DNA from: a virus
IMG/VR virus record: IMGVR_UViG_3300001097_000004
Span: 4,161 to 68,160 of that record
Length of the DNA stretch: 64,000 nt
Direction: 5' to 3' (one strand)
A model generated the notes under the pieces. That model saw nothing but the letters and a program-made list of their open reading frames with translations. It ran no database searches and was not told where the DNA came from. Each line of letters begins with the position of its first letter. Position 1 is the stretch's first letter. Made by a program: the position numbers and the translations under genes. Shown here piece after piece: positions 18,074 to 59,338 of this stretch.

Positions 18074-21000
18074 TTATGTAAGCAATCTTAAGAGTTTGTT
18101 CATCTGGGATGAAATTTCAGACTGACTGAATAGGTCTGCACCTGTCTTGAATGCCTCTAGCTCCGCAACAGCAGGTTCAGCATCCTCCGCACCGATCTTT
18201 TTAGTGACACGAACAATGAAGTCATCAATCAGGTCCCGCAATACGGGCGGTAGGTCGGAGAAGCGGACCTTCTCGGCCTCTTCACCAAACGGTAGAGGCA
18301 GATTGGCGAGAACCTTGCCGAGGTCGGTAGTAGCACTTCGAACATTTGCAAGAGCATCAGAGTTCAGGGCCCCGGTGTCTAGTCGATTAAGTGTTTCAAT
18401 AAGGTCCAAACCGCTCTTCACGGACCCCGCGTAGTCGCCCACGCCCTCGTAGCCCTCTGTCTCCTTGAGCTTGTCGATAACGCTCTGGTTGCTAGATGTA
18501 CCCAGATTGTCTTTGATACGCGCAAGAACTAGTCGAAACTGGCCCTGATCGTCCCGGGGCTGATTCTTCGGGGTATACTTCTCACGGTTCTCTTCAGCAT
18601 CTGGGGTGTCCTCGGGGTCCTCAGGGGCGCTCTGCCCGCGAGCCTCTAACAGTTCACGAATCTTGCGCTCTTCGATTTCCTTGGTAGTAGAGGCAAACTC
18701 AGTTGTGCGAGCAATACGCTCACGAAGTTCGTTTACGCTGTTGGTGTCGGTTCCGTTGGCGGAGCTACGAAAGGAAGCATTGGGCAATTCTTGTCCCTCT
18801 GCTGCCGCCTCCCTACGAGACTTTGCAGAGACGTACCCGAACTCTGACATGCGGTCCAAAACTGCTTCGGTGCGTGCGGAAAGCTCTGCATCACGTGCAG
18901 CGCGAGCCCCGGTCATCCGTTCACGAGCTGCGGAGGCCTGAAGGCTTAGTTCCTTGTTAGAAAACTGCTCCAACTTCTCTAGGCGGGCCGATAGCTCGTC
19001 AAGCGGGTCTTCTTTCAACTTAGCTAGGGACATGGCACCTGCAGCAACAAGGGACATAATCTGGCCCGAGGCAACAAGTGTCCTGGCGATGGGGAAGCCG
19101 GGAACGTTGACTTGGCAGACAGCCACAAGTTCCAGCTTGCCGCGAATCGGTCGCCAGTCTCCTGAGGGAGCTGAGGCGCGAAGTGCTCGAATCTGTTCCG
19201 GAGAGGTTCCGGGGCGCACGGCACCGGCCACCCAGATGCCGTAAGCGTCTTCTCCAGCGTGAATATCCGCGACACTTGAGGCTGTGTCGTCGTAGTGACG
19301 GGCGGCCTCCCGAGCTGAGGCTGACATTCCGGCGTGGCCTCCAGCTAGTGTCAGCTGGCCCACGGGAACGTCTTCTCCCTCTTCGGTGCGAACAACTCCT
19401 GAGTGGAAGTATGCGTAGTTACTTGGAGAGTGGGGAGGGTTGGTCTTGAACTCACGACCAATGTGGTTGCTGTCCCATGCGGCGATATGTCCGAAGACCT
19501 TGCCATCGTCTGTGACGGTGAGAGGTGTGGGAGCACTAAGACTCGGGTTGGTGAACCACTCCTGCGGAGGAGTAATTGGGATCGCGTTAGCAATGAAGGC
19601 GCACGCGACTAGCGCTTCCTCTTCACGTGGGTCGTTGCCGTCCACGTAGATTCCATCTGGAATCATGTTGTCCTCCTGTAGTACCGCTTCCGGGACGAGT
19701 TGAATTGTGGCTTCTTGGAATGCAGGCTTAGCTACTATTGTAACAGCCATAACGCGACTCTGACTGATTGTCATCTTGCGTTGTCTGATGGACTTAACGT
19801 CCTCTTCCTCGGCTGCAGCCTCTTCAGGCTCCTCATCAGCCTCGAAATTGTCCATATCTGCGGAGACGAAACGGAGCATCCCGTTACGGACCATGCGTTC
19901 AGCTTCTGCTCCGTACACCCCAACATCAAAGTGGCCGTAGCCGCCTCCAATTCCTAGGGGTGTGCGACCTAGACGTTCGATCAGCCCCACGACTACTGAG
20001 CCTTTATGCCCATCGTCTGTCTTGATCTGCCAGAGCAACGAGATAGGCAAGTTTCGAATCGTGGCTGCATACTTATCCACCAGACGACCGTCTCCAGAAG
20101 AGATGCCCTCCGGGAGAGCTAGCGGGATAAAGAATGCGGCACCGAGTGGATTCAGTGAGGGAATAACGCTGGCTGCAGCCGTCAACCCCTTTGGAGTAGA
20201 AGTGTCGTAGATGTTGTATTTTGGCTCACCAGAAGCGGTAAGACCGCGCATACGCAGTCTAGCCATTTCGCCACGGGTGCGGTCCACAGATGCAGTGAGG
20301 GCTTCCTCATAGTCTAGAATCAGGTCATCAGAGAATTCTGTCTCTCCTGATAGGGCAGAGAACATCTCGCGGTGCTTCTTGTCACCGGTCCACATGCCTG
20401 TGACCTCGTGGTGACGTAAGGAACAATATCCTTTGGCGCGAGGCCCCATATACTTGCTCAGGTTGGCAACACAACGGGTCCAGTCTCCTGGAGTCCCCCA
20501 CACAATTTTGAGAGCCCCTGGGCCTTTAGTCCAGTAGTGGCGTAGCTTTTCAGCCCCGCCTCGATTTCGGTCCAGGCCTCCGTCTGCAGTGACTGCTGCG
20601 TCCATGATGTCTTTGCGCGGACCCCAGAGGACCATAAGCCCATGGTCGTAGGCAGAGGCGGCTACCGGCTCTTCCGGAGCCTCAACCTCTTCTGCGGGTT
20701 CGGAATCTGTGTCTCCCTCAAACCCCGGAGCTGGAGATTCACCAAGATATTGACTTTCTTTGGTCTTAGTCTTGCTCTGTTCCTGGGCGCTGTCAACCTG
20801 TACGAGAACATCGTTGAGCGCATCATCGGTGAGCGGAATAACGGGTGGAGGTGTTGCGGAGGTCAGAGTATTCATGACTTGTTCGTCTTGGACCCACTTC
20901 CCTGAGTCACGCTTATATGCTACGGGCTGGGTGCTTGAGGCAGTAGCCGGTACAAGGCTGATGAGCTTGAGTACGGCACGGGGGTCATCTGGAGCAACTA

Positions 21001-22717
21001 CAGCAAGGTAGACAGGTTCAACATCAGAGGACTGAGGGGTGAGAGACCCGTCTGTGCCTTCCTCTGCGGGAGCGCTCTCAGAGTCAACAGCATCCATCGG
21101 AGCAGCCTGTACAGCATCCTCTACTTCATCACTTGCGGCGGTGATCGGCTGATACCAGAGCTTGTTGGATTGGTTTCCCTTTGAGTTCTTTCTCTTCAGC
21201 CACTCGCTAATTAGGGAGTTGCTGTAGGCATCGGTAGTAAGCGTCTTACCTACAGTGTTCTCAAGCGCTCGTCCGGATGCCCCCTTATCGAGACTATCCT
21301 TCTTGAGGACTCCTCGGGCTCCTGGAGACGCTGCAGGCTTGAAACTCTCTCGCTGGGCCTTAACCCACGCGGGGAAGTTGTTGATAACACCGTGCAAGTC
21401 TTTGGCAGTCATCTGAGGGAGAGTGCCCGGAATCTGGGCCACGTCTCTGTTGACTGGGGTGCGCGGCTCTGCAAGAATTCCGCTGAAGTCTACGCGAGGA
21501 ATATCTTCGGTCTCGCCTGGAATCTGGGCCACAAATTGAGGTGATACTCCCGTAATCTGGTTCCCCAGAATAGTCTGAACACCGCCGCTGTCCATACGGA
21601 CATCAATAGTTCCGTTCTGGTTTACGCGGTCGATCTTACCGGCCTGGGATGGGTCATCGTTGACGATGACTCGCCCACCCTGCTTGGCAAACAGGCCCTT
21701 AGAGTCTCGCACCTGTTTGGAGGCATTAGCGGAGCGCTCGTCCTCAGTGTAGACCCCATCTCCAGGTGTCCCGGCTGTAGCGACCACAGAGTCAACGAGT
21801 TCCCAGTCCTCAGACTGGATAGCTCCGCGAACAAGGCGAGACTCCCCTAGGTCTAGGTCGTCGGCCCATACGGGATCAAACGGATTAACGACAAGCAGCT
21901 CTGCGATTTGAATAGCAGACTCAGCATCTACGACGAGGTGACTGTAGCCGGAAGTGCTGGAGGCCGGGCCGTCTAGGGCGTTGTCGATGCTCCAAATGGT
22001 GGGGGTCTGCAGATTGAGGGAAGTCCAGAGAGTGTCATCCCAGACGTAAGTACTGTGGTCAATATCGATCTTGTAGAGGCGGTCGATTGCGCCATCCTCT
22101 AGGTCAAGACGGATAATGAATTCGGGTGAGGCCTCAGGATTCTCCTCTAGAATCTCACTGACCTCCTGCCAATCCGGGGCGTGCTGGACAATGCTGGCGG
22201 GCTCGCGGTCCACGATTGTGGTGGCCCAGCGGCGTGCTGCATCTCCACCGTATAGGCGCTGTGCAACCTCACCACTTGTAGGGGAGCCATCGGCGGTTAG
22301 TCCCACCTTGTCGTCAGCGTGACGTTTGAAGAAGTCTACAATGTTGCTTAGATGTGCAAAGTCAATCTGGGCCTCAGTAGCCAGAGTTCTCGCAGTCAGG
22401 AGTGCAACGGAAGAGCCACCAACGGGGCGAGCCGCGAAGCTCTCTAGACCTAGTCGTGCAGCGTTGCGAACCCCACGAGGAATTGTATACATACGAGGGG
22501 TCGCCTGGGGCTCAGCGAATGCGAATGCGGACAGACCTGCCTCAGCAGAAACCTCGTCCGTTTGAGTAAACTCACCAGCTTCCCAGGTACGTGACGCTTC
22601 TAGCGTTGATGATGTGCCCGAGGCCACTACTACGGATACTCGGGAATCTACGACCACACCGCTATCGCCTTCTGTAAACAAAAGATGATAGCCAGATCGT
22701 CCAATGAAACTAGCCAT
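18074..22717 (-). CDS. capsid maturation polyprotein with prohead protease
   Basis: 1547 aa. Residues about 687-790 carry a domain frequent in actinophage head polyproteins (EKLRHYWTKGPGALKI.WGTPGDWTRCV..LSKYMGPRAKGYC). Residues about 868-1215 match the HK97-type prohead serine protease: GHKGSVVVGLIERL, LRFVSADMDN, VTIVAKPAFQEA, then FGHIAAWDSNHIG...YAYFHSGVV...GHAG...HYDDT...AGEDAYGIWVAGA. The protease should process capsid and scaffold. The N-terminal 680 residues hold further modules, including RDSKGLFAKQGGRVIVND, and are probably internal head proteins. The C-terminus is helical. The length far exceeds a normal protease of 200-300 aa. Confidence 0.8.
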   Translation of the reverse strand: MASFIGRSGYHLLFTEGDSGVVVDSRVSVVVASGTSSTLEASRTWEAGEFTQTDEVSAEAGLSAFAFAEPQATPRMYTIPRGVRNAARLGLESFAARPVGGSSVALLTARTLATEAQIDFAHLSNIVDFFKRHADDKVGLTADGSPTSGEVAQRLYGGDAARRWATTIVDREPASIVQHAPDWQEVSEILEENPEASPEFIIRLDLEDGAIDRLYKIDIDHSTYVWDDTLWTSLNLQTPTIWSIDNALDGPASSTSGYSHLVVDAESAIQIAELLVVNPFDPVWADDLDLGESRLVRGAIQSEDWELVDSVVATAGTPGDGVYTEDERSANASKQVRDSKGLFAKQGGRVIVNDDPSQAGKIDRVNQNGTIDVRMDSGGVQTILGNQITGVSPQFVAQIPGETEDIPRVDFSGILAEPRTPVNRDVAQIPGTLPQMTAKDLHGVINNFPAWVKAQRESFKPAASPGARGVLKKDSLDKGASGRALENTVGKTLTTDAYSNSLISEWLKRKNSKGNQSNKLWYQPITAASDEVEDAVQAAPMDAVDSESAPAEEGTDGSLTPQSSDVEPVYLAVVAPDDPRAVLKLISLVPATASSTQPVAYKRDSGKWVQDEQVMNTLTSATPPPVIPLTDDALNDVLVQVDSAQEQSKTKTKESQYLGESPAPGFEGDTDSEPAEEVEAPEEPVAASAYDHGLMVLWGPRKDIMDAAVTADGGLDRNRGGAEKLRHYWTKGPGALKIVWGTPGDWTRCVANLSKYMGPRAKGYCSLRHHEVTGMWTGDKKHREMFSALSGETEFSDDLILDYEEALTASVDRTRGEMARLRMRGLTASGEPKYNIYDTSTPKGLTAAASVIPSLNPLGAAFFIPLALPEGISSGDGRLVDKYAATIRNLPISLLWQIKTDDGHKGSVVVGLIERLGRTPLGIGGGYGHFDVGVYGAEAERMVRNGMLRFVSADMDNFEADEEPEEAAAEEEDVKSIRQRKMTISQSRVMAVTIVAKPAFQEATIQLVPEAVLQEDNMIPDGIYVDGNDPREEEALVACAFIANAIPITPPQEWFTNPSLSAPTPLTVTDDGKVFGHIAAWDSNHIGREFKTNPPHSPSNYAYFHSGVVRTEEGEDVPVGQLTLAGGHAGMSASAREAARHYDDTASSVADIHAGEDAYGIWVAGAVRPGTSPEQIRALRASAPSGDWRPIRGKLELVAVCQVNVPGFPIARTLVASGQIMSLVAAGAMSLAKLKEDPLDELSARLEKLEQFSNKELSLQASAARERMTGARAARDAELSARTEAVLDRMSEFGYVSAKSRREAAAEGQELPNASFRSSANGTDTNSVNELRERIARTTEFASTTKEIEERKIRELLEARGQSAPEDPEDTPDAEENREKYTPKNQPRDDQGQFRLVLARIKDNLGTSSNQSVIDKLKETEGYEGVGDYAGSVKSGLDLIETLNRLDTGALNSDALANVRSATTDLGKVLANLPLPFGEEAEKVRFSDLPPVLRDLIDDFIVRVTKKIGAEDAEPAVAELEAFKTGADLFSQSEISSQMNKLLRLLT

Positions 22718-22729
22718 TAAGTTGTTACT

Positions 22730-23344
22730 CTATTCGTCGGAATTGTTGTCTGACTCGGAGTCTTCCGTGTCAGGCTCAGCGGACTCGTACTGCTCTGCAT
22801 CTGATACTGTGACAAAATTCTTGTCGTACTGCTCGATAAAGGCTTGGGCCTTCTCGGGGTCGATAAAGATTGCTTCCATGTCTTGGTGAGTCTCATCAGT
22901 TGGGGAGAGGCCAACCCAGTCTCCATCGGTACGGACATAACGTCCGGAGTCGTTGGCGTAGACAAGTCCTACGATGTAAGCTGAGTCTCCCAGCGCGTAA
23001 GCCACAAGGCTCTCGGGGTGATTAATTTTGTCTCCTTCTTTTGCAAGGCTTCGTAGGGCTTCTACTGGCAAGTCAGTTTTGAATGACGACAACCAGAGTC
23101 CGTCAGGCTCCCGAAAAAGGCGAACCCTGTAGGTGGTGTCTGCGGACTTAAACTCTAGTCTAGCAGTTTTTTGGTCTACTGTTATATCATGAGCCTTAAA
23201 TGACTCGTCTGGGCCGGTCACCGCACTGACGGTCACCGAGGTCTTCCCGACGAGCGTCACCTTCAAGGTTACTACAGGTTGGGCCCCTTCGGAGGTTAAG
23301 ACCCCTAGTCCTGTGAACAGGGGGTACGTGTTAGCTTTTACCAT
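22730..23344 (-). CDS. conserved phage protein of the head module, unknown role
   Basis: 204 aa. ATG 23344 lies inside the last codons of the 3557-aa gene (7-nt overlap), with GGAGCCAGGACT before it, so translation is coupled. Mostly beta strands, ending in an acidic tail (EPDTEDSESDNNSDE). Not recognised; its place suggests a head component. Confidence 0.7.
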   Translation of the reverse strand: MVKANTYPLFTGLGVLTSEGAQPVVTLKVTLVGKTSVTVSAVTGPDESFKAHDITVDQKTARLEFKSADTTYRVRLFREPDGLWLSSFKTDLPVEALRSLAKEGDKINHPESLVAYALGDSAYIVGLVYANDSGRYVRTDGDWVGLSPTDETHQDMEAIFIDPEKAQAFIEQYDKNFVTVSDAEQYESAEPDTEDSESDNNSDE

Positions 23345-26300
23345 AGTCCTGGCTCCTCGTCATCATCTTCTAGCAACTCGTTCGAGTCAATGACCTGTGG
23401 CCCCTTGTTTACAGAGTTGATAAGACCGTTTAGTCTGAACATAATAGTACCATACCAAGCGGTCTGATCCATGTCCACAAAGTCTGGGAACACTGCCTGC
23501 AGCTTGCCTTTGACCATCAGTAGCTCGGCAGAGGTCATGTTGCCCCTGCCTGCACGAAGGTCGGCTAAGAGCCGGTCCGTGTACGGCGACTGCCAGACAT
23601 TTTTCTGGAATTCCGGCTCAAGAGATAGAAGTCCGTGATCGATAGGTACGTGCTTGCCTTCGGGGGTGATCATCATGTTTCCAAGGTTCTGGTCGCGGTC
23701 TGGGTTTCCAATGAGGAAGTCCAATAGACCAATCTTTGGCATGTTCTCATGTCCGGGTTCCCAGAAGCTCTTATCGATATCCTTGTACCACAAACTAATG
23801 CTGGCACCCTCGTCAGCATCGCGGTTGCCGGTCCGGGGGACACTGTAGTGCTGGGCTGCAGCCTTTCCGGGGATTGTTGTGCTAGCAACAGTCACACCAT
23901 CGGGAAGCATAGACATGGTCACATCGTCAATGCCTACGGCACGCATGACACGGTTGGCGGCAAGTTCTGCCTGCCCCATACCAACCTTGCTGGCACCTCT
24001 GGCACGCTTGACGAACAGCTTCTGGCCGTCCGCAGTCTTCACGAAGGCCCCAAGTTCGTGGAGTGCACCCTGCTCAGGCGCGGGACCATCGGGGGTGCTG
24101 CCTTCAAGAAGACTGGCGATCTGAGCAGCAGATTCGGATTTGATGTTCTCGTAGAAGTGTGGCTCATCAGCCACCAGGGTAGGCGAGTCATCGCCACCTC
24201 GGTGCCTACGACGAGCATTAGCCTCAACCTGTGCACGACTTGGGGTCGCTGCAAAGTAGGTCTCATTGGCCTTGGAAGGCACAATGACATTGAACTGCTG
24301 ATCCTTGTCCGGAGAGTAGTCGAAGATTTCTCCTGTGTTCCGGAGAACCCCGTCAACAGAGATTGGAGCACCGTAGGGGTCTTCTGCGTCCAAGAGACGT
24401 ACCCTTATGGTTCCATCATCCTTGCGGCCTAGAGTTTGGAGGTATCCAAGCCCACGCAGAGGAATGATATCCCCGACTTCCATGTCACGGACGAGCTTGT
24501 ATCGACGTTCGAACTGGTCGGTACTACGACCGATCTTTTCAAGCTTGTTGACCTCAGCAATGTCCGGGAAAGATACAGCTTCCCCACCATAATCCACACC
24601 GCTACGTAGGTCTGCAAGGTCCTGCTCGGAGCGACCCTCCACTAGGTTCAATGTTTCAGTAGAGATACCGAACTGAGCGAAGAGGGCAGCTAGCGGAGAC
24701 TCATTCTCTCTAGTCTGTGCCTCCTCTTCGATGTCAGAGATTGTCCTGATCATATCTTCAACGTCGGCCTGGGTGGCATCCAGATCACCCAACACACCTT
24801 GAGCCATGTCAAAGTCTGCACGAGTGAGACGCTTGTCGTCTAGTAGACGACGCAGAGTATCAATCTGGGCGTTAGTGGCCGGAGCCGCCGGGTCAATAAC
24901 ATCATCGAACTCGGAGAGGTCCATGTCCTCGAATGCTGTGAGGGTTTCTGGTCCAAGGTCGCGCTCTTTGATTGTCTGGGAGCCATCCTCTCCGGCGCTG
25001 GCGGTCGTGACCTGAGTGCGGTCGTTGTCCTTACGCTGGATTCGGATTACAGTCTCGTACTGAACGTTGTTGCCTTTGTCTAGCGTGGTGATGTGGTCCC
25101 CGGGAGCTAGCTCAGAAGCTCTTGCAGACTTCGGCTCAGCGTTCTCAACACGAATGGCAGCATCACGGCTATCGGACGGAACGTTGGCCCCTTCAAATCC
25201 TTCGATTTCAGTCTTGCCCGTTGCAGGATTCAACTCAGCCTTAGCCTTCGTAGGTGCGGCCTTCTTCGGACGAGCAACAGTCTTGTCGCCAGTCTCCGGA
25301 ACACCGAATCCGTTAGCCTCCATGAGATCATGGTCGATCACACGGGTGGGCGGGAAGAACGGCTCAGACTCAGGAGCGTCCGGTCCACTGACCTTCTGCA
25401 GACCGGAGCCTACGTGAGGAATCGAGCGTGACTCAGGGTTTCTAAGTCCGTTCTCGGTGTTCTTCTCGATGAAGGTGGAAAGCGTGGTGTCACCATAACC
25501 ATATCCGGCAGGGTTCAGAGCCTCATAGAGCAAGTGGTCAACCTGGCCACGATATACGCGTCCGTAGTTCGGGTTAGGCTCGGTCACAACTTTAGGCTTG
25601 CCTGTAGTCACGTTATAGACAAGGTTTCCGTCTTCATCCCGTAGAGGAATGTTGTTTCCATCTGCATCCTTAACCGGGCGAGTCTTGCTGTTGTCAGTCC
25701 AATCAACCCAGTCTCCGGCGTGCAACTTTGTACCGTCGAAAGAGATGTGAGAAGGCTTATCGGCCTTACCGGGGTTGAGCTTGTAGTTAGCTTCTGCCTT
25801 CTGTCGGCGCTTAACTGCAGAGAAAACCTTCGCAATCATCTTGGGGTCGAGGCTGCTCTTGGCACCGATAGCCTTGAGAGCCTTGAGATTTGTTACCTCA
25901 GGGTTGTCCATGAGCATCTGAACAATGGCTCCGATAGCCTGTGAGTCAGCCTCGTGAACGGACTTCGGAAGGTCTGTCCCAGAAATCAGCTCATCAGCGG
26001 CGCTGTCCGGAAGGACCCCATCCGTGCCTAGATAGTCCTTCTTGACGTAACGCTGCTTCTTGAAGAACGCTTCGGGGTCTCCGATGCCGGACATGCCCTT
26101 CTTGATGTAGTTCAAGGACTTGAATACTGCCTTGGGGGAGTGCTGACCATTCTCACGCAGACGTGTAGCGGTCACCTCTCCAGTCTTGAGGTCCGTGGCA
26201 GTTATGTAGGTGAAGAACTGATTGCTGCTGGTACGACGAATGGTCGTATCGTAGCGCTTTTCACCGAATTCACGGGACTGAACAATCATATCACCATTAT

Positions 26301-29300
26301 CCTTACGGATGAAGTTCGGGTGAGCGAACTCCAGCTGATCAGAAACTGAGTCAGCATTGGTGTAGTTGTTCGGGTTGTCGTCCGCAGCCATAAGCCCGGG
26401 GTCGGTAGGCGTGAAATTCTCAGCCAAGTCCTCTGAAGGTCGAGGTGTGGTCTTGATGTCGGCACGGTCAGGTGCGCTGGAGACCTCCTGCATGATCTCT
26501 GCAGACTCAGCGGGGGTCACACCCTCGTTGATGCGATCCTTGATCTCCTGCTTGCGCTCTGGAGTAATATCCTTGGCCTCAATAAGAGTCTCAACGACCT
26601 TTTCACGGTTCCCAGAAGCTACATGCTCCTCGGATGTGAATGTAGGGGCCTCTGGTGCCTCGTCAGGTGCAGGAATAGTATCATCGGGGTCAGCGTCGCC
26701 TCCGGAGTCCAGAGTCTCGTACTTCTCGTAAATCTTGTCGAGCTGCTTCTGGAGAATCTTCTTACGAATCGGATTGGTCTCGTTCGACTTCTCGATCTCA
26801 AGACGACCGGCTAGGTCCTCTAGCTCGTCCGTGGTGTCCGGCATTCCGTCACCGACAGGCTCATCCTCAAGGGCAGCATCGGGCTCCGGAGTCTCGTCCG
26901 GTGTCGGCTCAGGCTCTGGAGTATCACGAACGGCTCGGGCAGCATCGCGCTCACGGCGGTCCTTCTCCATACGCAAATCATCTTCGCGCTCAAGATCGGT
27001 GATGGAACGATCCTCTTCAGGTGTGTCGGTGCGTAGATCAATTTCTGCGTCGATTTCCTCGACCGACATATCCCTCGGCTTGGTCTCTACAGGCTGATCG
27101 GCCTTGATTTGCTCACGGCGTTCAAGTTCCTTACGAACATCCGCCATTTCCTTGGGGGAAGAGTTGCCGTTGTTTAGGACATCGTTGGCGTGGTTATCGA
27201 GGTCACCGTCAGACATGGTCTCTAGCGGAACTTCAACTTCAGAGTCTCCTGGAGCGACAACTTCTGCCGCAGCAGGGGCCTCAGGAGCTTCGGGAGCCTC
27301 TTCAGCTTCTGGAAGTGTGGCTGTGTCGTAGTTTTCGGTGCCAGGAATACCTCGTGAAGGGGTGTCTGGGTTCTCGTCAGACTCGTCGGTATAGTCGAAA
27401 GCCCATGCAAGGGAGCCTGGATCAAGGGCTTCCTGAGCGCGGGTAACGGCCACGTAGGCTAGACGCATCTCTTCGGGCTCTGGCCACGTCATTTCAGACT
27501 CCCCGGTCCTCTCGTTGACCTCTTCCTGAGGCCCACGGAAGTCCGCAGCGATCTTGACTCGGTTCCACTCAAGACCCTTAGCCTTGTGCGCGGTGGAGAC
27601 TACAACATCAATCGGAGCTTCATCGCTGTTCTGCATCGCAGTGATGCCATCAGCCATGCTGTCTGGTCTGCCGGTCTTGTCCCACGACTTGCTGTCACGG
27701 TTCCACTTGAACCCCATGGCTCGGAACTTGTCCCCAATCGGGAACGTGTTTCCGGACACCTTGAAGGTTACGTCTCCGCCACCAGCATCCTCAACATCAT
27801 ACATGGCGGGCTTCATGCCACCGAACTTGTTGGGCACGTCTACGAGCACACCGCGTGCGCCCGGAGTCCACTTGACGGCCTCTCCAGCACCGAAGCCAGC
27901 ACCATCGGTCTCTCGGATGCTACCTACGGCCTGTTTGATCTGGTCCATACCCATCGTGTTCACGATGTTGTACAGCATGGACACCTTTGCGGAGGCCTTG
28001 CCATTGGCTACGTCATCAGCAACTTCGTCCCATGTGGTGTAGCCCTGGAGGTCTTCGTGGTTGACTCTACCGTTGCCGTAGCGCAGTGTGTTCACGCTTT
28101 GGACAAGGTTCTGCATGTCCTGCTTGAACTTCTTGGAAGTACCGACAACGCGGCCCTTCTCTAGCTCTTCGAGGATTGAGGTCAGTGCCCCAGCATTAGA
28201 GCGTGTGAGAATTGCATCCGGGTCGTTCATGGAGCCGGGCTCCATAACTTCACCCTTCTTACCTCCACCAATAACCTTCAGTGGGGAGTTGAGGAGCGAG
28301 AGGAACCGGTTCCCGAACCCAGCAATCTCGGGGCCGAAGCGCCAGGACTGTGTGAGGGGAAGATCGATATCAACCTCTACGTTGTCCATCTCGTTGATGG
28401 CACCGCGGAAGGAGTAGATGGATTGTCGAGCGTCACCAACGTAGACCTTCTGGATGGTCTGATCACGGACGATCTTGGCCATAACCGGGTTGATGTCCTG
28501 GGCCTCATCGAAGAAGATTACGTCAGCCTTACCTGGTCCCTTGCCCGGAACGGACTGGGAGAGGTCTGGCTTGCTGAGAGCCCAAATCTTGAAGTTGTGG
28601 TTGAAGGTGTATTTGATCTTGCCAGTCGGGCTGTTTAGGTCGGCCCAATACTCTTCGGCCCACGCCTGTGTCTGCTCGTTGTGTGGGATGTCGAGACCCT
28701 CAAAGTGCTGAGGACCGATCTTGTCGTCAGCGCTAATGGAGAACTTGTCAATGGCCTCGCCTAGGGCGCGTGCAATCTCCGTGTCCTCGTGCTCTTCGCC
28801 GTCAAGCTTGGTGTTCTTGATATCGAGGTGCTGTGCAACCTTCTTAGGCAGCACTAGGGACTCTCGGTCACTGAGCTTCTTGGTGAGCTTCTTGTCTACA
28901 CCAGCATACGCCAGTGAGTCGCCGGTACGTGAGTGCACGTTCTTCGGCATACGACCATCGGCCTCAAGCTGAGTAGTCTTGTTGAAGGCCACGTAAAGGA
29001 TGTCCTTGTCCGGATCATTCTTCTGCAGCTGGCGAGCCATTAGCTCAAGTGTGGAGGTCTTACCGGTTCCGGCCAGAGCCTGCACAATGGCAGACATTCC
29101 GGACATGACGGCGCGGATAATGTTGCGCTGTTCCTTGGTCGGCATGAACTTCTCGTCAGCGTAGTCCTCATCGGAGTCCTGGTAGGGAATTTCCGTCTGG
29201 GCTGCATCTCGGAGCTTCTGGCCTTCCTGGCTCTGCTGAAGAATCTCTTCGCTACGGGTCAACCCGCTACGCTCAGATGAAGCAATGTAATCATCCAGCG

Positions 29301-32300
29301 GGGTGTCCTCCGGAATATCAATGCTGTCTGCAGTACCAGAAGAGGACGGGATGCGATCTACATCTAGACGGTCGTCCGTGTCTCCACTAGGCTCGGCAAT
29401 TTCATAGATGGCAGAAGAGTTTGTAGGCTCGCCGTCGTTGTTGAGGTTGAGGGGCTTGTTGGTGTCCTGCAGTCCTGGGAAGTCCTGTCGGGACTTGCGC
29501 TCTGCAAGCGAGCCCTCAGAGTTGGGTCCAGCATCTACCTCATCTAGAGTAATGCTTTCGCCATTGACTACATCGAAGATAGCGTCTTGGTTTCGTTCCT
29601 TGCCGATACGGACAGCATCATCTCGGTCATCAACCTTCTCGGACACGTCCAGAGCGTACTCGTTGCCGTCTTCGGTCTTCCATACGCCAAGGTTGTTGCC
29701 GGGCTTGTCCAGCTCTTCACGGTTCTCGTCCACGTAGTTATTGACAGTGTCTAGGCCCTTCTCAGGGTTGTCGATATCATCCAGAGGGACACGGAACTCG
29801 TGATCCTCAAGGGAAACAATGAACCCATCCTCGGGTCGTTCGCCAGTGTTGACATCAACAGTGATGCCACCATCCGTACGGATGTCGTCTAGCGTGGCCT
29901 CATCGACCATGAATACACCCACACGACGTGCGTCAGGAACGTCAGTCTCGGTGCCAATAAGGTCAGCGCCCCATAGACTCTCGTCTACAGGTCCAGCCTT
30001 CTGATCAGCGAACGGACGGTCGGGGATTGGCAGACTGCCGTTGTCTCCGAAGTAATTAGTCCAAGTGTTCTGACCACGAGTCTCAAGCCACAGGGCCTGC
30101 CAAGAATCTTTGGGCAAAGTGCGACGGTGGGTTCTCCATGCCTCCCATTCGCCCTTGGGGCCGAAGCCTACAGTGGCTCCACGCTCCTTGGACTTGACGT
30201 GACCGAAGTAGTCGTGAACGGCACGGAAGAGGTCATTGACAACAAAGTCCTTGCGATCAATCGTGACGACATTCTTCATTGGGTGGCCCACAGGTAGAGT
30301 GGCTCCACCGTCTGCGAACACCTTCAACGTACCGTTGTTTTCCACGTCAGCAAGCATCTCTGCAGAGCTACCATACGGGTCGTCCTGGCCGAACTGAATT
30401 TCAACTCCGTCAGCCTTCATCTCAAGGTACTGTGCAGCAATCGCATCGGTAAGCTTGAAGTAGGACTCGCGCACTTCGGGGGTTAGGTCCATATCTGGCA
30501 GGGCATCATAGGCCTCTGCCGCAGTGGGTCCCGAGGCATCCCAGGGGGTGACCTCTGGTTCGTCGGGGGCAGCGTCCATATCAGCGAGACGCTTCTCTTC
30601 AATACGTAGGTCAGCGTCGAGGTCATCAGCATACTCGCCGTTAGCAGTCTTGAGACGTTCCTTAAGGTCTGCAATACGTGACTCAACCTTGGCACGTTCG
30701 GGGCTTGAGGCCTCAGGAGCGTCCGGCTCCGGCAGAGTATCATCAACTACGGGGCGGTCGGGAAGAGTGTTGATGGCCTTGAGGGTCTTCTCCATCTCGG
30801 CCCAGCGGTCCTTCTGGTCCTGGCTGCGGAGGTCTACCTGCCAGCTGTCGTTGAAGTCCTCTAGACGTGCGGCCCAGGAGGCATCCTTTTGAAGTTCATC
30901 CAGAACCTCCTGCTTGGAGGCCCCATTCTCGATCATCTCAGCGATGTGGCCGTCAGAGTCGAAGTCCTTGATGAGGTCGGCGGCGAGGTCCGGCTTGGGC
31001 GCAGCGAGCCGCTCCTTCTCAGCGGCTCGTTCGGCCTTGACGGTGTCCGTATAGTCAACGTGCTCCTGGACTGAGTTCCACGAGTACGCGGTACCACCAG
31101 GCATCTGGCCGTCCTTGTGCTTGATAACAAAGCGCGGAGAGAGCTGACCGTTTCCCCCCTTGATGGAGAGAAGTGTGGCTTCGATGTTACCGTCTGGAGA
31201 AGTCCAAACTTCACTGCCGTTAGCGTCAGTGCTCTTGGTCCAACCCTCTAGAGGGGTATTACCAAAGCGGTCAAGGTTGGTGTCTTCAGGAATGTCCAGC
31301 TCTGCGGGGTCGGCGGGGGTGTCCGCTTCTGGCGCAGGGGTAGTACGTGCATCACTGTCGGATACAATCAACTTCCCACGATTGACAACTATGTAATAGT
31401 TGGAGCCATCATCCTGCTTGGCGACAATCGCGTCATACCCCAACTCGGAGGCCAAAGCACCAATACCCTGCCCCATCTGAGCAGACATGGCACGGTCTAT
31501 CTGAATGTCTCTAGACTTCCAGTTTACCTCGGGTCGTTCATCCAGTGGGATACTTTCAAACGCCCGGAAAGTCTCCATACGAGCGAGCGCTAAAGTTCTA
31601 AGCTCGTCCATGTCAATGATTTTTGCATCCCTAGGGAGTGCGGCAGCTACGGCATAATCATTACCGTCCATATCGGAGTAGTCACTAACAACCCCTTCAT
31701 AGTTATCTCCAAAGTAGATTCCGAGACCGAAATCTCCAGGCTTGAATGGGGCAATCTCGGAGGTTCGTAGAGCGTCTGCACGCCCCTCGGGAGTGTCAGG
31801 AGTTCCCGTCTCGCCGTCCTCGTCGTCATCATCGGATGACCCGTTCCAGCTCAGCCCCTCCATGCGATAGATCGGTGTGGCACCGGCATCAACGGCATCT
31901 TTTAGCTCTTCGGCAGTAACAACCTGGGGCAGACCGCTACCATTCTCTGCGACAACAAAGTCAGAACTGAGGTTAAGACCGTACTGGTAGTTATACTTCC
32001 CGAACATGTCTGGACCGAGATCAGTAGGAGACTCCTCACTAGTGTATGGAGAAGACTCTTTTGACGTGCCGTCAGGCGCGTCTAGTGCATCGAGCTTGGC
32101 CTGCGTGTCCGCAATGTCCTGCTCGATCTGATCTAGCTGCTCGGGCTTGGCGTTGTCTAGTCTTTTGTTATTCCGAGCGAGGGTACGTTCGAGGGCTCTT
32201 CGGTCGGAGTCGTCTCCGCTGTCGGCTGGGGCTGCTGTGGGCTTGTCTCCTCCGGAGTCTCCACTATCCCCTCCTCGGGAGTCGGGCTCGGCTGGGCTCC

Positions 32301-34011
32301 CTGTGTCAGCTTCTGGCTGATCTGGGTCGTCCACTGCCTTAGCTGTTCCGGGGTCATCTGTCCCAGATTTTCCGGAATCGGAATCACTGTCTTTGGCATC
32401 GGGTGCCTCCTTCTTTTCGGTTTCCTTAGGATCGCCAGCCAGCTCCTTCTTGAGGTCGTCAACAGACTTCTCCAGGTCAGCAAGACGCTTGTCCTCTTTG
32501 GCTTTGTCGTTCTTCTGCTGCTCCTTGAGACCGGCTCGGGCCGTGTCGGCTTCTTCCATGTCTCCGGAGTCGGCGTTCTCACCCTTGTCGTCTAGGTTCT
32601 TCTGGGCTCTTGTGTCAGCGTCAATGATCTGCTCACGCGCTAGAGCGTCAGCCTCTTCACGCGCCTTCTCGTAGGCATCCCAACCGGCACGCTCTTCTTC
32701 GGTCATGTCGTCTACGGGCTCGATCTTCTTCGAGGGTGCGTCCGTCTCCGGAGCCTCCCCCTCAGGCGCATCAGCCTCGGCTTCAGGAGCCTCATCTAGG
32801 GCTGCAATCTTCTCTTCAGTCTCAACGATCTGCTTCTCAAGACGTTCGAACTGCTTGCCATCTGCATTGGCTTGCTGATCGTTCAGCTTGGCTAGGCGGG
32901 TCTCCAGAGCTTCGCGCTCTTCAGGCTTGACCTGACTGGCAGGCTCGCCAGCCACACGTCCCTTGTCGTTGGGGATGGTCTCTCCGGTGGAGAGGTCGTG
33001 GAACTCGGGGGCACCGATGCCACCAGCCTGGGCCTTAGCGTTGTCTAGGGTGTCAGCGGAGGTGTAAATCTCAACAGAACCGGAATCCGAGTCTACAACG
33101 AGGCGCTTTCCGGAGCCCTCCTTGAGGTAGTCACTATTCGCTTCAACGAACTGGGCCAGACCTTCAGGAGAGGTGTCCTGGCCGGACTTGCCGGTAGGAA
33201 TAAGGAAGCCCTCACGTGCAACACCGAAGGTGTCAAGGTCGAGTTCACCCTCACCAAGGTCACTCTCGGACTGCGCGTCAGCAATGTCCTGAGGCTGAAC
33301 GTCAGCGCCCTCGGGCAGACGTTCCTTGGTATCAAGAGTGTCCTCCTCAGGACCGAAAGAGTCTAGCTCGTTGACCTGCTTGAGCGCGAAGCCCACGCCA
33401 CGCCAGTTCTTGACGGTGCCCGGGTTGTTGTTGACATTTTCAACGCCCCATGTCTCTGTCGGGGAGCCGTCCACTTCGGTGGTGCTGTGGTAGAGGTTAT
33501 AGTCGTTGTCCTCTGTGGACCACATCTCCGCACCGCCCCTAGCGGGCTTGTGGTTCCAGCCGATGGGTGAGTCTGAGAACGGAATCTTGTCAACGTCAGG
33601 AATCTTTTCGGAGAGACGTTCCTTGACGAGGGTGCCGTTAGCGTCTAGACCGAGCTTGATACCCCGGTCGGAGAGTTGCTTGGCGGAAAGCTGGCCAACG
33701 AACTCCTGCACGTTGGAACTCTTTACATCATAGAACCCGGTCCTAAGTCCGGAAGGGTCCTCGGAGACGTAGACCTGAGCGGTCTGCGGATCACGAGCAC
33801 CTACGAATGATCCGAGCACGGAACGAACGGTTCCATCACTGAAGCGAACCTTGAACTTGAGCAACCCACGACCCATGAAAATGAATCGTCCGTAACGGTC
33901 ACGCAGCTGGAGCTTGGCTCGTGCTGAACGTGCGGCCTTGCTATTTCCACCAGCGGCAACAAGTGCGGCCAGTTCCTCATCAAAGTCAGGAAACTCAGGA
34001 AAATCGAGCAC
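23338..34011 (-). CDS. giant 3557-aa head polyprotein: ART-like, UvrD-type helicase and kinase-like domains
   Basis: Uninterrupted frame from GTG 34011 (GAGGACT upstream). Residues 1-110 have LRDRYGRFIFMGRG..KFKV, a motif seen in actinophage head polyproteins. Residues 365-660 are acidic coiled coil. Residues 745-885 resemble an ADP-ribosyltransferase fold (FGLGIYFGDNYE...YYIVVNRGK). Residues 1165-1330 are a conserved phage domain (NDLFRAVHDYFGH...WLETRGQNTW). Residues 1621-2215 are an SF1 UvrD/Rep-type helicase: Walker A AGTGKT 1647-1652, FFDEAQD 1833-1839, QSIYSFRGA 1863-1871, AHKAKGLEW 2141-2149, VAVTRAQ 2187-2193. Residues 3285-3530 look like a PI3K/HipA-type kinase (FVKRA 3333, GNPDRDQNLGN 3435-3445, PIDHG 3456-3460). 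Lying between portal and protease genes, it is probably packaged and ejected with DNA. This is the polyvalent-protein type; activity of each domain is inferred. Confidence 0.85.
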   Translation of the reverse strand: MLDFPEFPDFDEELAALVAAGGNSKAARSARAKLQLRDRYGRFIFMGRGLLKFKVRFSDGTVRSVLGSFVGARDPQTAQVYVSEDPSGLRTGFYDVKSSNVQEFVGQLSAKQLSDRGIKLGLDANGTLVKERLSEKIPDVDKIPFSDSPIGWNHKPARGGAEMWSTEDNDYNLYHSTTEVDGSPTETWGVENVNNNPGTVKNWRGVGFALKQVNELDSFGPEEDTLDTKERLPEGADVQPQDIADAQSESDLGEGELDLDTFGVAREGFLIPTGKSGQDTSPEGLAQFVEANSDYLKEGSGKRLVVDSDSGSVEIYTSADTLDNAKAQAGGIGAPEFHDLSTGETIPNDKGRVAGEPASQVKPEEREALETRLAKLNDQQANADGKQFERLEKQIVETEEKIAALDEAPEAEADAPEGEAPETDAPSKKIEPVDDMTEEERAGWDAYEKAREEADALAREQIIDADTRAQKNLDDKGENADSGDMEEADTARAGLKEQQKNDKAKEDKRLADLEKSVDDLKKELAGDPKETEKKEAPDAKDSDSDSGKSGTDDPGTAKAVDDPDQPEADTGSPAEPDSRGGDSGDSGGDKPTAAPADSGDDSDRRALERTLARNNKRLDNAKPEQLDQIEQDIADTQAKLDALDAPDGTSKESSPYTSEESPTDLGPDMFGKYNYQYGLNLSSDFVVAENGSGLPQVVTAEELKDAVDAGATPIYRMEGLSWNGSSDDDDEDGETGTPDTPEGRADALRTSEIAPFKPGDFGLGIYFGDNYEGVVSDYSDMDGNDYAVAAALPRDAKIIDMDELRTLALARMETFRAFESIPLDERPEVNWKSRDIQIDRAMSAQMGQGIGALASELGYDAIVAKQDDGSNYYIVVNRGKLIVSDSDARTTPAPEADTPADPAELDIPEDTNLDRFGNTPLEGWTKSTDANGSEVWTSPDGNIEATLLSIKGGNGQLSPRFVIKHKDGQMPGGTAYSWNSVQEHVDYTDTVKAERAAEKERLAAPKPDLAADLIKDFDSDGHIAEMIENGASKQEVLDELQKDASWAARLEDFNDSWQVDLRSQDQKDRWAEMEKTLKAINTLPDRPVVDDTLPEPDAPEASSPERAKVESRIADLKERLKTANGEYADDLDADLRIEEKRLADMDAAPDEPEVTPWDASGPTAAEAYDALPDMDLTPEVRESYFKLTDAIAAQYLEMKADGVEIQFGQDDPYGSSAEMLADVENNGTLKVFADGGATLPVGHPMKNVVTIDRKDFVVNDLFRAVHDYFGHVKSKERGATVGFGPKGEWEAWRTHRRTLPKDSWQALWLETRGQNTWTNYFGDNGSLPIPDRPFADQKAGPVDESLWGADLIGTETDVPDARRVGVFMVDEATLDDIRTDGGITVDVNTGERPEDGFIVSLEDHEFRVPLDDIDNPEKGLDTVNNYVDENREELDKPGNNLGVWKTEDGNEYALDVSEKVDDRDDAVRIGKERNQDAIFDVVNGESITLDEVDAGPNSEGSLAERKSRQDFPGLQDTNKPLNLNNDGEPTNSSAIYEIAEPSGDTDDRLDVDRIPSSSGTADSIDIPEDTPLDDYIASSERSGLTRSEEILQQSQEGQKLRDAAQTEIPYQDSDEDYADEKFMPTKEQRNIIRAVMSGMSAIVQALAGTGKTSTLELMARQLQKNDPDKDILYVAFNKTTQLEADGRMPKNVHSRTGDSLAYAGVDKKLTKKLSDRESLVLPKKVAQHLDIKNTKLDGEEHEDTEIARALGEAIDKFSISADDKIGPQHFEGLDIPHNEQTQAWAEEYWADLNSPTGKIKYTFNHNFKIWALSKPDLSQSVPGKGPGKADVIFFDEAQDINPVMAKIVRDQTIQKVYVGDARQSIYSFRGAINEMDNVEVDIDLPLTQSWRFGPEIAGFGNRFLSLLNSPLKVIGGGKKGEVMEPGSMNDPDAILTRSNAGALTSILEELEKGRVVGTSKKFKQDMQNLVQSVNTLRYGNGRVNHEDLQGYTTWDEVADDVANGKASAKVSMLYNIVNTMGMDQIKQAVGSIRETDGAGFGAGEAVKWTPGARGVLVDVPNKFGGMKPAMYDVEDAGGGDVTFKVSGNTFPIGDKFRAMGFKWNRDSKSWDKTGRPDSMADGITAMQNSDEAPIDVVVSTAHKAKGLEWNRVKIAADFRGPQEEVNERTGESEMTWPEPEEMRLAYVAVTRAQEALDPGSLAWAFDYTDESDENPDTPSRGIPGTENYDTATLPEAEEAPEAPEAPAAAEVVAPGDSEVEVPLETMSDGDLDNHANDVLNNGNSSPKEMADVRKELERREQIKADQPVETKPRDMSVEEIDAEIDLRTDTPEEDRSITDLEREDDLRMEKDRRERDAARAVRDTPEPEPTPDETPEPDAALEDEPVGDGMPDTTDELEDLAGRLEIEKSNETNPIRKKILQKQLDKIYEKYETLDSGGDADPDDTIPAPDEAPEAPTFTSEEHVASGNREKVVETLIEAKDITPERKQEIKDRINEGVTPAESAEIMQEVSSAPDRADIKTTPRPSEDLAENFTPTDPGLMAADDNPNNYTNADSVSDQLEFAHPNFIRKDNGDMIVQSREFGEKRYDTTIRRTSSNQFFTYITATDLKTGEVTATRLRENGQHSPKAVFKSLNYIKKGMSGIGDPEAFFKKQRYVKKDYLGTDGVLPDSAADELISGTDLPKSVHEADSQAIGAIVQMLMDNPEVTNLKALKAIGAKSSLDPKMIAKVFSAVKRRQKAEANYKLNPGKADKPSHISFDGTKLHAGDWVDWTDNSKTRPVKDADGNNIPLRDEDGNLVYNVTTGKPKVVTEPNPNYGRVYRGQVDHLLYEALNPAGYGYGDTTLSTFIEKNTENGLRNPESRSIPHVGSGLQKVSGPDAPESEPFFPPTRVIDHDLMEANGFGVPETGDKTVARPKKAAPTKAKAELNPATGKTEIEGFEGANVPSDSRDAAIRVENAEPKSARASELAPGDHITTLDKGNNVQYETVIRIQRKDNDRTQVTTASAGEDGSQTIKERDLGPETLTAFEDMDLSEFDDVIDPAAPATNAQIDTLRRLLDDKRLTRADFDMAQGVLGDLDATQADVEDMIRTISDIEEEAQTRENESPLAALFAQFGISTETLNLVEGRSEQDLADLRSGVDYGGEAVSFPDIAEVNKLEKIGRSTDQFERRYKLVRDMEVGDIIPLRGLGYLQTLGRKDDGTIRVRLLDAEDPYGAPISVDGVLRNTGEIFDYSPDKDQQFNVIVPSKANETYFAATPSRAQVEANARRRHRGGDDSPTLVADEPHFYENIKSESAAQIASLLEGSTPDGPAPEQGALHELGAFVKTADGQKLFVKRARGASKVGMGQAELAANRVMRAVGIDDVTMSMLPDGVTVASTTIPGKAAAQHYSVPRTGNRDADEGASISLWYKDIDKSFWEPGHENMPKIGLLDFLIGNPDRDQNLGNMMITPEGKHVPIDHGLLSLEPEFQKNVWQSPYTDRLLADLRAGRGNMTSAELLMVKGKLQAVFPDFVDMDQTAWYGTIMFRLNGLINSVNKGPQVIDSNELLEDDDEEPGLW

Positions 34012-34299: not shown

Positions 34300-34328
34300 A
34301 TCCTATCAGGTCTACTGCGGTTCCGCAA
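34300..34328 (-). promoter_or_regulatory. leaderless promoter inside the portal 3' end
   Basis: TTGCGG (34323-34328), 17 bp, TAGGAT (34300-34305), then 6 nt and ATG. It could drive the head polyprotein genes separately from the terminase-portal unit. Confidence 0.55.
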
Positions 34329-36000
34329 GGTCAATTGGGGGAGCATTAGCGCCCGGGGCGACATCAGGTCCGTCCGACACAGGCTCCGCACCCGGCTCAG
34401 CTCCAGGGTCAGCGGACCCGGCGTTCGGGTCTCCCGGAGAGCCGCCCTTGAGAATGTCGTTGACATCACCGGGGATCGGAGCCGCGTTGGTGGCCTGACT
34501 TGCGGCACGGGCGGCATCCATAAGCTCAGGGGAGATAACCTTCAACAGGCTCTCGGTCAGCTCAGGAGTGAATGTGGCGCGGTCCATGAGAAGACGCAAA
34601 GCCAGCTCCGTGGGGTCCGGAGCATCCGAATCCGAGAAGCCGTGCTGTCTACGCCATGTCTGGGCGGAGACGGCCATCTTCTCGTACCCCACGTTGGCAT
34701 CTTCAGCGCGGTCGTTGCGGGTAGCAACAGAGGAGGGATCGTACCAGACAACGAGACGGTCAACCTCAGCCTGATCCCAGCCCTCAGCCATGAGGTAGGG
34801 ACGCAAGTAGACAATGGTGATTGCGTCAGAGATCAGGAGAAGCATCGGCTCAATGTGGGCCTTGTAAAGTGCTTCGTCAATTTGTATTGCGTTGCTGTAC
34901 TTCACGTTGGCCAGGCCTGTAACAACATCCTTCGGAACGTCAAGTCCCTGGAGGATTCTCTCCAGCACGCGGTCAGAGCGGGCGATCATCGTCTGGTCGT
35001 ACTCACGCGTGAATGTGATGTGACGGATTTCTTTTCCCAACTCTGTGGGGCCACGCACTAGGAGAGGCACAACCGCAGACGCGGAGTCCTCTTCAGAGAT
35101 GGGTGTGGTCATAGCTTCGACCAGCTCGTTCTCGAACGAGTCCGCGATCTCTTCGGGCGTGGGTTCCTTGTCGGCATCCTCTCCATCCTCTAGATAGAGG
35201 TCTGGGTCGGGCATAGCGGCGTTGGAGAGGCCGTCCGGAACGAACAGCAGACCGGCGTTCAACCTAGAGCGTTCGACGGAGCGGAAGGATCGGTTAAGGA
35301 GTAGAAGTTCAGCGCAGAGGTCGAGGAGGCCCTTCAGGCTGGAGTCGGGGTCCTCAGAGAAGCGCGGGTGGGCACGCCACATACGACCCACGAACGCGGT
35401 GTCGGGGAGCATAATGCTGCCCTGCTTGGTTCCACTACCACCAACTAGATCAGATCGGGGTGCGAGGTAGTAGCTATTTTTTCCGGCCATCTGAAGCTCG
35501 TCAACGGATCGGACATCCCATGACTCGCGGGTGCCGGTTCCAATACGCTCAGGAAGCTGAACTAGATAGCACTCGCCAGCAACACTGAGGTTGAGAGCTG
35601 CATCGCGCAAGAGGCCCGCCTGTCCACCGTAGGCAGAGTCTAGACGGGTGACGGCACGAACGGCAGCGTCCGCGAGATCGGGGTCAAGAGTGTCGGAGTC
35701 TCTAACAGAAATAGGAACCTCTGCCGGATTTTCAATAACAGCCGGGTAGAGACGAATTCGGGAGACCACGGAGGCCACCAAGTTGAAGGCGTACTTGATC
35801 TCACCGATAGAGTCGTAGTACTCCCAGGCCTCAGTCTGCCACTGCTTTGTATTGGAGCCTTGACGGCGCTTGAAGGCTGCGGCCTCGTTCTTGTCCTTAA
35901 GGTTGATTCGAGATGCAGCAGCAGTTAGGGGGCGCGGTGCGTTGTAGACCGTAGCCTCGGCTGAAGAGGCATCGGGGTCACGGAGGAACGGGGAAGCCAT
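34312..36000 (-). CDS. portal protein
   Basis: 562 aa from ATG 36000 (AAGGACCTATAC upstream); an earlier in-frame ATG at 36060 has no ribosome site. The pattern is that of actinophage portals: WQTEAWEYYDSIGEIKYAFN.VASVVSRIRLYP near the start, an E/D-rich middle, LRDAALNLSVAGECYLV, and a long helix near ERILQGLDVPKDVVTGLANVK. The dodecameric portal is the DNA entry and exit channel. The C-terminus is Pro/Gly/Ala rich. It is preceded by a DUF1360 gene and followed by head genes. Confidence 0.9.
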   Translation of the reverse strand: MASPFLRDPDASSAEATVYNAPRPLTAAASRINLKDKNEAAAFKRRQGSNTKQWQTEAWEYYDSIGEIKYAFNLVASVVSRIRLYPAVIENPAEVPISVRDSDTLDPDLADAAVRAVTRLDSAYGGQAGLLRDAALNLSVAGECYLVQLPERIGTGTRESWDVRSVDELQMAGKNSYYLAPRSDLVGGSGTKQGSIMLPDTAFVGRMWRAHPRFSEDPDSSLKGLLDLCAELLLLNRSFRSVERSRLNAGLLFVPDGLSNAAMPDPDLYLEDGEDADKEPTPEEIADSFENELVEAMTTPISEEDSASAVVPLLVRGPTELGKEIRHITFTREYDQTMIARSDRVLERILQGLDVPKDVVTGLANVKYSNAIQIDEALYKAHIEPMLLLISDAITIVYLRPYLMAEGWDQAEVDRLVVWYDPSSVATRNDRAEDANVGYEKMAVSAQTWRRQHGFSDSDAPDPTELALRLLMDRATFTPELTESLLKVISPELMDAARAASQATNAAPIPGDVNDILKGGSPGDPNAGSADPGAEPGAEPVSDGPDVAPGANAPPIDLAEPQ

Positions 36001-36010
36001 GTATAGGTCC

Positions 36011-36316
36011 TTAGTTGCTGAGTTTTTGGTCGAGGATTCCGACCATAGTGGATAATGCAAGAAGTGTGCATCCGATAAGGGTGGGCACGGGTACCAGCAA
36101 GTACAATACTAGCACAACTGCGGCGATCCAGAAGCCCAAACACCAGTAGCAGGTGAGCAGATAGCCTATGCGTGTGCTCTCCGGGGGGAATTTGTTCCAA
36201 AAACGGGCTCTGAGACCGGAAAACAAGGTATCTTCTATGGCCAAACGACAGAGTCTGTAGATGGCCAGGGCCAGAATAATGAGGTAGACAGGGTTGAAAT
36301 AGGGGGTAAAATCCAT
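36011..36316 (-). CDS. DUF1360-family membrane protein
   Basis: 101 aa, ATG 36316 after AAAAGGACC. The motifs YRLCRLAIEDTLFSGLR and YLLTCYWCLGFWIAAVVLVLYL match DUF1360 (the CxxC/GFW signature). Three or so membrane segments. Role unknown; the family occurs often in phages and Gram-positive bacteria. It ends 10 nt before the portal start. Confidence 0.75.
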   Translation of the reverse strand: MDFTPYFNPVYLIILALAIYRLCRLAIEDTLFSGLRARFWNKFPPESTRIGYLLTCYWCLGFWIAAVVLVLYLLVPVPTLIGCTLLALSTMVGILDQKLSN

Positions 36317-59329: not shown

Positions 59330-59338
59330 ATTATCTCT

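What the first reader, a model, noticed from the sequence alone, without database searches (positions are those of the whole stretch)
23338..34011. 3557-residue polyprotein with SF1 helicase, ART-like and kinase-like domains in the head operon
Seen: one 10.7-kb frame between portal and protease genes, with a full set of UvrD-type helicase motifs, an ART-like block and a C-terminal kinase-like block. Known: polyvalent proteins of phages and conjugative elements combine such domains and are thought to be delivered with DNA. Inference: this is an ejected multi-enzyme that protects or starts processing of the incoming genome and modifies host proteins. A helicase inside a structural polyprotein of this size is rare.
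Basis: partly seen in the sequence, partly recalled or inferred. Interest (0 to 1): 0.85.

Follow-up and report, generated by a model that had tools for sequence, protein, structure and literature searches.

The report
Giant phage-head protein with helicase cargo
A tailed virus of actinobacteria encodes, among its head genes, one 3,557-residue protein that carries a complete DNA helicase and at least one kinase-like enzyme behind a short front-end module; many related viruses appear to put the same front end on different enzymes, which suggests a loading tag for enzymes shipped into the host with the virus DNA.

Summary
The 10.7-kb frame is real (minus strand, 34011→23338, GTG start, 3557 aa), between portal and a 1547-aa protease protein. 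An intact SF1A helicase (residues 1620–2215) is confirmed; its core is FBH1-type. The C-terminal kinase-like block is supported at sequence level. The ART-like block is only suggestive. A further domain (1151–1495; PHROG 3170) also occurs in a head-region gene of Bixzunavirus. It is best called a phage "polyvalent protein"; nothing supports a polyprotein cut between domains. The new part is comparative. In 60 of 63 related portal loci examined, an ORF 3' of the portal carries the same ~90-aa module (here residues 19–110) ahead of exchangeable cargo: helicase, ADP-ribosyltransferases, kinase, DnaQ exonuclease, GNATs, ArdC/zincin. In four complete genomes (129–194 kb) the module occurs only between portal and major capsid genes, including in or next to the protease protein. 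A shared motif, [LIV][TVI]A|[AGS], precedes the module in 25 of 37 non-redundant large ORFs and recurs at the capsid-protein maturation junction, before the protease domain and in the portal. I infer a head-loading tag, trimmed by the maturation protease, carrying ejected cargo. Virion location and ejection are unproven.

The parts
23338..34011 (-). giant polyvalent protein, 3557 aa, GTG start
   Evidence: homologous frames in the same gene position in related phages
33946..33963 (-). candidate head-maturation site LVAAGG (residues 17-22), cut predicted between the two alanines (LVA|AGG)
   Evidence: motif [LIVM][TVI]A[ASG] just before the N-module in 25 of 37 non-redundant large ORFs vs 1.5% of interior windows; inferred, not shown
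33682..33957 (-). N-terminal module (residues 19-110), AAGGNSKAARSARAKLQLRDRYGRFIFMGRG..., proposed head-loading module
32950..33675 (-). second N-terminal region (113-354), shared with Microbacterium phages and some IMG/VR relatives
32557..32925 (-). acidic/coiled-coil linker (363-485), similar to residues 1103-1225
   Evidence: (R360 query, second match 4.7e-50)
31297..31941 (-). ART-like block (691-905)
   Evidence: PF18760 E=0.048; inconclusive
29527..30561 (-). PHROG 3170 domain (1151-1495), HDYFGH...ETRGQN, function unknown
   Evidence: phrog_3170 2e-21; Bixzunavirus head-region gene
27367..29154 (-). FBH1-type SF1A helicase (1620-2215), motifs I-VI intact
25033..26658 (-). uncharacterised region (2452-2993) conserved in Microbacterium-phage relatives
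23341..24171 (-). kinase-like domain (3281-3557): K3335, NPDRDQNLGN catalytic loop, PIDHG
   Evidence: PF00454 1.5e-4; aligned catalytic residues in Pumpernickel gp82
34312..36060 (-). portal protein (582 aa), carries LTAA at residue 45
   Evidence: phrog_776
22730..23344 (-). 204-aa protein between giant and protease genes
   Evidence: no confident family
18074..22717 (-). 1547-aa head protein with maturation protease region and a short N-module-like motif at residues 326-352
15868..17916 (-). major capsid protein with ~285-aa acidic N-terminal domain and AITA|GADLPG at the junction
   Evidence: phrog_777

Best explanation
It is a virion-packaged polyvalent effector of an actinobacterial tailed phage. 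Made with the head proteins, it is recruited into the prohead through its N-terminal module (residues ~19–110), trimmed once by the head maturation protease at the LVA|A site, kept as one ~3540-residue chain in the head, and ejected with the DNA. In the cell the FBH1-type SF1 helicase/translocase would act on the incoming linear genome, stripping recombinases, helicases or nucleases from its ends or preparing it for replication, while the kinase-like and ART-like domains would modify host proteins. Shown: frame, domains, gene position, the shared module and its restriction to head genes, exchangeable cargo, motif recurrence. Inferred: packaging, trimming, ejection and targets.
For: Gene position kept: 60 of 63 portal ORFs with at least 2.5 kb downstream have an N-module ORF 3' of them. 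In the four complete genomes all 9 module matches lie between portal and major capsid genes, in the giant ORF, in a second ORF, or in/next to the protease protein. The motif [LIVM][TVI]A[AGS] precedes the module in 25/37 giants and recurs at the capsid-protein junction, before the protease domain and in the portal. Cargo in relatives is the polyvalent palette: ADPrib_exo_Tox 4e-61, RNase_T, ArdcN, MPTase-PolyVal, GNAT, PI3/4 kinase, Alt-like ART. The helicase is intact and nearest to F-box DNA helicase 1 (9xzj, 2.6e-28). Large-ORF helicases group together (92/95). Precedents: P1 DarB, 250 kDa, whose N-terminal 30 residues suffice for capsid targeting (PMC9024508); SPN3US head and ejection proteins losing N-terminal propeptides to the prohead protease (PMC10052503); phage polyvalent proteins (PMC5512222).
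Against: No virion proteomics was found for this family. The cleavage motif was defined after seeing the data, relatives are not independent, 12 of 37 giants lack a strict match, and the Arthrobacter-phage giants begin directly at the module with no upstream site. The ART block is weak. Nothing shows that a chain of this size passes the tail.
Confidence: 0.66

Rival explanations
1. It is packaged but stays in the head: an internal scaffold or core protein whose enzyme domains are inherited decoration or act only during assembly.
For: Very long acidic linkers and repeats; position with portal, protease and capsid genes; N-module-like motif shared with the protease protein.
Against: Helicase motifs are kept across divergent large ORFs and the cargo is exchanged for other host-modifying enzymes, unlike a passive scaffold.
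Confidence: 0.14
2. It is not in virions: a late cytosolic enzyme, with the helicase serving replication, recombination or packaging.
For: No direct virion data; in the records searched the only UvrD-type match lies in the giant ORF and no DnaB match was found.
Against: Complete relatives with a helicase-free giant (Pumpernickel, DSL-LC01) have no UvrD match anywhere, so the helicase is dispensable for replication in this group; the module is confined to head genes.
Confidence: 0.12
3. It is a true polyprotein, cut by the maturation protease or another protease into separate helicase, kinase and other enzymes.
For: Long low-complexity linkers separate the domains; one relative encodes a zincin MPTase-PolyVal domain.
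Against: The candidate maturation motif has 0 interior copies in this protein (2.3 expected) and 41 vs 61 expected across giants. A protease with another specificity is not excluded.
Confidence: 0.08

Closest known systems
Phage polyvalent proteins (Iyer et al. 2017, PMC5512222)
   Same: Several unrelated enzyme domains in one chain, encoded among virion genes; relatives carry hallmark domains (ART, ArdC N-terminal, MPTase-PolyVal, kinase, GNAT).
   Different: Helicases described there are mainly SWI2/SNF2 (SF2), with a UvrD SF1 helicase only in a few actinomycete conjugative proteins; here an FBH1-type SF1 helicase sits in phage head genes. Iyer et al. report that their proteins do not follow a fixed-N-terminus/variable-C-terminus plan; this family has a conserved N-terminal module.
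Phage P1 DarB (PMC9024508)
   Same: ~250-kDa head protein thought to enter the cell, N-terminal capsid-targeting sequence, listed beside portal and prohead protease in ORF order.
   Different: DarB protects against type I restriction; no methylase domain was found here, the helicase is SF1, and the proposed tag is a ~90-aa module rather than <30 residues.
Arthrobacter phage Racecar gp78 / Atuin gp71 and Microbacterium phage Pumpernickel gp82
   Same: Direct relatives in the same place; Racecar and Atuin carry the same helicase (39.5% and 34% identity); Pumpernickel shares N-module, the 2452-2993 region and the kinase-like domain.
   Different: Annotated only 'DNA helicase' or 'hypothetical protein'; different cargo sets.
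Eukaryotic F-box DNA helicase 1 (FBH1)
   Same: Best solved-structure match of the helicase core (2.6e-28).
   Different: No F-box was detected.
SPN3US head and ejection proteins with N-terminal propeptides (PMC10052503)
   Same: Head and ejected proteins share a protease motif and lose N-terminal propeptides.
   Different: SPN3US motif is AXE; here a hydrophobic-T/V-A motif, predicted only.

Membership tests
Phage polyvalent protein | two or more enzyme domains of unrelated activity in one polypeptide | tested here: met
   helicase plus kinase-like domain; ART not counted
Phage polyvalent protein | encoded among late virion/head genes | tested here: met
   portal 5', protease and capsid genes 3'; conserved in relatives
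Phage polyvalent protein | shares hallmark polyvalent domains | tested here: met
   in relatives with the same N-module: ArdcN, MPTase-PolyVal, ADPrib_exo_Tox, GNAT, Alt-like ART; in the window protein itself only the weak ART-PolyVal hit
Phage polyvalent protein | packaged in the virion and injected | not testable with these tools
   indirect evidence only
SF1A UvrD/FBH1-type helicase | motifs I, Ia, II, III, IV, V, VI intact | tested here: met
FBH1 proper | F-box | tested here: not met
   no F-box hit in Pfam scans
ADP-ribosyltransferase (ART-PolyVal) | family score and catalytic residues | tested here: inconclusive
   E=0.048, 14.9 bits vs cut-off 31.2; AF2 pLDDT 41.7
PI3/PI4-like or protein-kinase-like fold | ATP-binding Lys, catalytic Asp/Asn, DFG-like Asp | tested here: met
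   conserved between window protein and Pumpernickel; score below gathering cut-off, 22.2 vs 27.1; no usable model
P1 DarB | DNA methylase with SF2 SWI2/SNF2 helicase (domain content per PMC5512222) | tested here: not met
   only SF1 helicase and kinase-like families found
Proteolytically processed polyprotein | cleavage sites between domains | tested here: inconclusive
   0 interior copies of the candidate motif; other specificities untested

The most novel reading that the evidence does not exclude
The ~90-residue N-module is a general head-loading tag of a large actinophage group: it directs exchangeable enzyme cargo into the head, is trimmed by the same protease that matures the capsid protein at a hydrophobic-T/V-A site, and makes these proteins a cassette system (fixed tag, variable cargo) like polymorphic toxins but loaded into phage heads.
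Probability: 0.5. Interest if true: 0.78.

Novelty: new variant of a known kind. Interest (0 to 1): 0.63.

Why it matters
Polyvalent proteins are mostly identified by domain content and gene neighbourhood, with no shared loading signal. If the N-module is a head-loading tag, it would identify ejected proteins in many actinophages by sequence alone, make cargo loading directly testable by fusing it to a reporter, and show an FBH1-type recombination-control helicase used at the moment of genome entry.

Tried and rejected
AlphaFold2 on the ART-like block (pLDDT 41.7) and the kinase-like block (34.6), both single-sequence because usable relatives were too few: models unusable, so no fold search was run. 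Viral-contig scans for the whole protein, ART block and kinase alignment found nothing; a genome-contig scan for the N-module found nothing. PDB searches for the N-module and the PHROG 3170 domain gave nothing credible; IMPDH hits to the C-terminus are chance-level. Replicative-helicase role: judged unlikely because complete relatives without the helicase cargo have no UvrD match. Cleavage into separate enzymes: not supported by motif counts. PF18760 searched over whole records rang in none, so ART is not claimed.

Full report
What is there. The frame is real but lies on the minus strand: GTG at 34011 to the stop at 23338, 3557 aa, with AGAGGA 5' of the start. The window is part of a 74,663-base IMG/VR record. 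Gene order in the direction of transcription: terminase with an intein-like insert, portal (PHROG 776), the giant protein, a 204-aa protein, a 1547-aa protein whose 870-1284 region matches head maturation proteases, and the major capsid protein. Equivalent frames sit in the same place in Arthrobacter phages Racecar (2709 aa) and Atuin (3113 aa), Microbacterium phage Pumpernickel (2235 aa) and lake phage DSL-LC01 (3289 aa). A chance frame is excluded.

Domains. Residues 1620-2215 are an intact SF1A helicase: phrog_1967 at 6e-84, motifs I AGTGKT, Ia, II FFDEAQD, III, IV SWRFG, V TAHKAKGLEW, VI YVAVTRA. The nearest solved structure is F-box DNA helicase 1 (2.6e-28; UvrD and PcrA only 1e-3 to 3e-4). 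The last 277 residues match the catalytic part of PI3/PI4 kinases (1.5e-4, under the curated cut-off), and the Lys, catalytic loop and DFG-like residues are kept in Pumpernickel. The ART-like block 691-905 has the order of an ART-PolyVal domain (YR, GLGIYF, GYDAIV) but scores only E=0.048, and its model failed, so I leave it open. A fourth domain, 1151-1495, is PHROG 3170 (2e-21); in Bixzunavirus phages its relative is a separate gene a few genes after the major head protein, and in cyanophage MinM2 it lies in a 2803-aa gene.

A shared front end. A scan with a portal alignment found 564 relatives in IMG/VR, of which 80 loci were kept. Of 63 portal ORFs with at least 2.5 kb downstream (all loci pooled, some fetched later by other queries, a few duplicates), 60 have an ORF 3' of the portal with the N-module (consensus GGNSxAARSxRAKLQRRDRxGRFAEMGGG followed by a variable, possibly beta-rich stretch). 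The exceptions are Gordonia phage GMA2 (distant), a locus with only 2.5 kb downstream, and L089. The module stands either near the very N-terminus or after ~180 residues. Whole-record searches placed all 9 matches in the four complete genomes (129-194 kb) inside the portal-to-capsid interval (gene positions). Besides the giant ORF, these are a second ORF in DSL-LC01, and the protease protein itself (Pumpernickel, DSL-LC01, and the window's own) or the gene directly before it (Racecar, Atuin).

Exchangeable cargo. Behind the module, relatives carry different enzymes: ADP-ribosyltransferases (L033, 4e-61, four stretches; Atuin 2e-6), GNATs (L049), DnaQ-type exonucleases (L043, L078), KTSC, kinase-like domains (L032, L085), and in L078 exonuclease + helicase + ArdC N-terminal domain + MPTase-PolyVal. 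The 8 best helicase relatives in that IMG/VR scan (33-47% identity) all lie in large ORFs, the largest of 5188 aa. In a 39-row tree the 21 large-ORF helicases fall on one side of a branch (92/95; 91% of bootstrap trees), apart from free-standing phage helicases. This suggests one capture, though sampling is limited and two of the 21 (L099/L100) lack the module.

A candidate maturation site. Just before the module most large ORFs have [LIVM][TVI]A[AGS]: 25 of 37 non-redundant cases against 32 of 2154 interior windows. The p-value is formally tiny, but the motif was chosen after inspection and relatives are not independent, so it is a lead. What raises it is recurrence: ITAG at the junction between the acidic N-terminal domain and the capsid fold in the window's major capsid protein and most relatives, [LIVM]TA[AG] about 14-17 residues before the protease domain in the window and Microbacterium-type loci, and LTAA in the portal. 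The window giant has the motif once (LVAA, 17-20) and none in its interior; across giants interior copies are fewer than expected (41 vs 61, Poisson 0.004). One N-terminal trim and an otherwise whole chain is the simplest reading.

How it would work. By analogy with P1 DarB, whose N-terminal 30 residues suffice to send a reporter to the capsid, and with SPN3US, whose head and ejection proteins lose N-terminal propeptides to the prohead protease, I propose head loading through the module, one trim, and ejection with DNA. The helicase is not needed for replication as such, since complete relatives with helicase-free giants have no UvrD match. Fission yeast Fbh1 restrains Rad51 recombination (PMC4148199), so a role in keeping host recombination and end-processing proteins off the entering linear genome is plausible but is inference.

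Known versus new. The protein belongs to phage polyvalent proteins by the testable features. Iyer et al. report UvrD-type SF1 helicases only in a few actinomycete conjugative proteins, and state that polyvalent proteins do not follow a fixed-N-terminus plan. I found no paper in the held library that joins actinobacteriophages with polyvalent proteins; that is a limited search. The conserved module and its link to the protease protein are therefore the new element, with moderate confidence.

Noticed in passing
window 37944-40559 (-): Large terminase ORF carries a LAGLIDADG/Hom_end insert between terminase N and C domains, most likely an intein.
   Followed up: no
window 57542-60958 (-): Adjacent genes that look, by eye, like a VWA/CobT-like protein and a MoxR-type AAA ATPase.
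   Followed up: no
L088 5653-6954 (Sebata gp107): PHROG 3170 domain as a separate 433-aa gene in the head region of Bixzunavirus; its conserved HDxFGH...E...ETxGQN pattern has no assigned function.
   Followed up: partly
L092 2999-18562; L097 416-14827: Even larger ORFs of 5188 and 4804 aa; L097 has scattered helicase-profile matches and no N-module.
   Followed up: partly
L049 12217-21531; L033 3692-12148: L049 giant protein has several GNAT acetyltransferase stretches; L033 has four ADP-ribosyltransferase stretches, suggesting cargo amplification.
   Followed up: no
L174 (CAKLQH020000005.1): Record filed as Acinetobacter phage MD-2021a holds ubiB, hisI and nuoL: looks like bacterial chromosome, not phage.
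   Followed up: no
L030 19613-20431, L055 7085-7906, L069 4138-4941, L087 6891-8129: Short ORFs before the giant gene carry two copies of a segment similar to window residues ~985-1085, so this piece also exists as a separate repeated protein.
   Followed up: no
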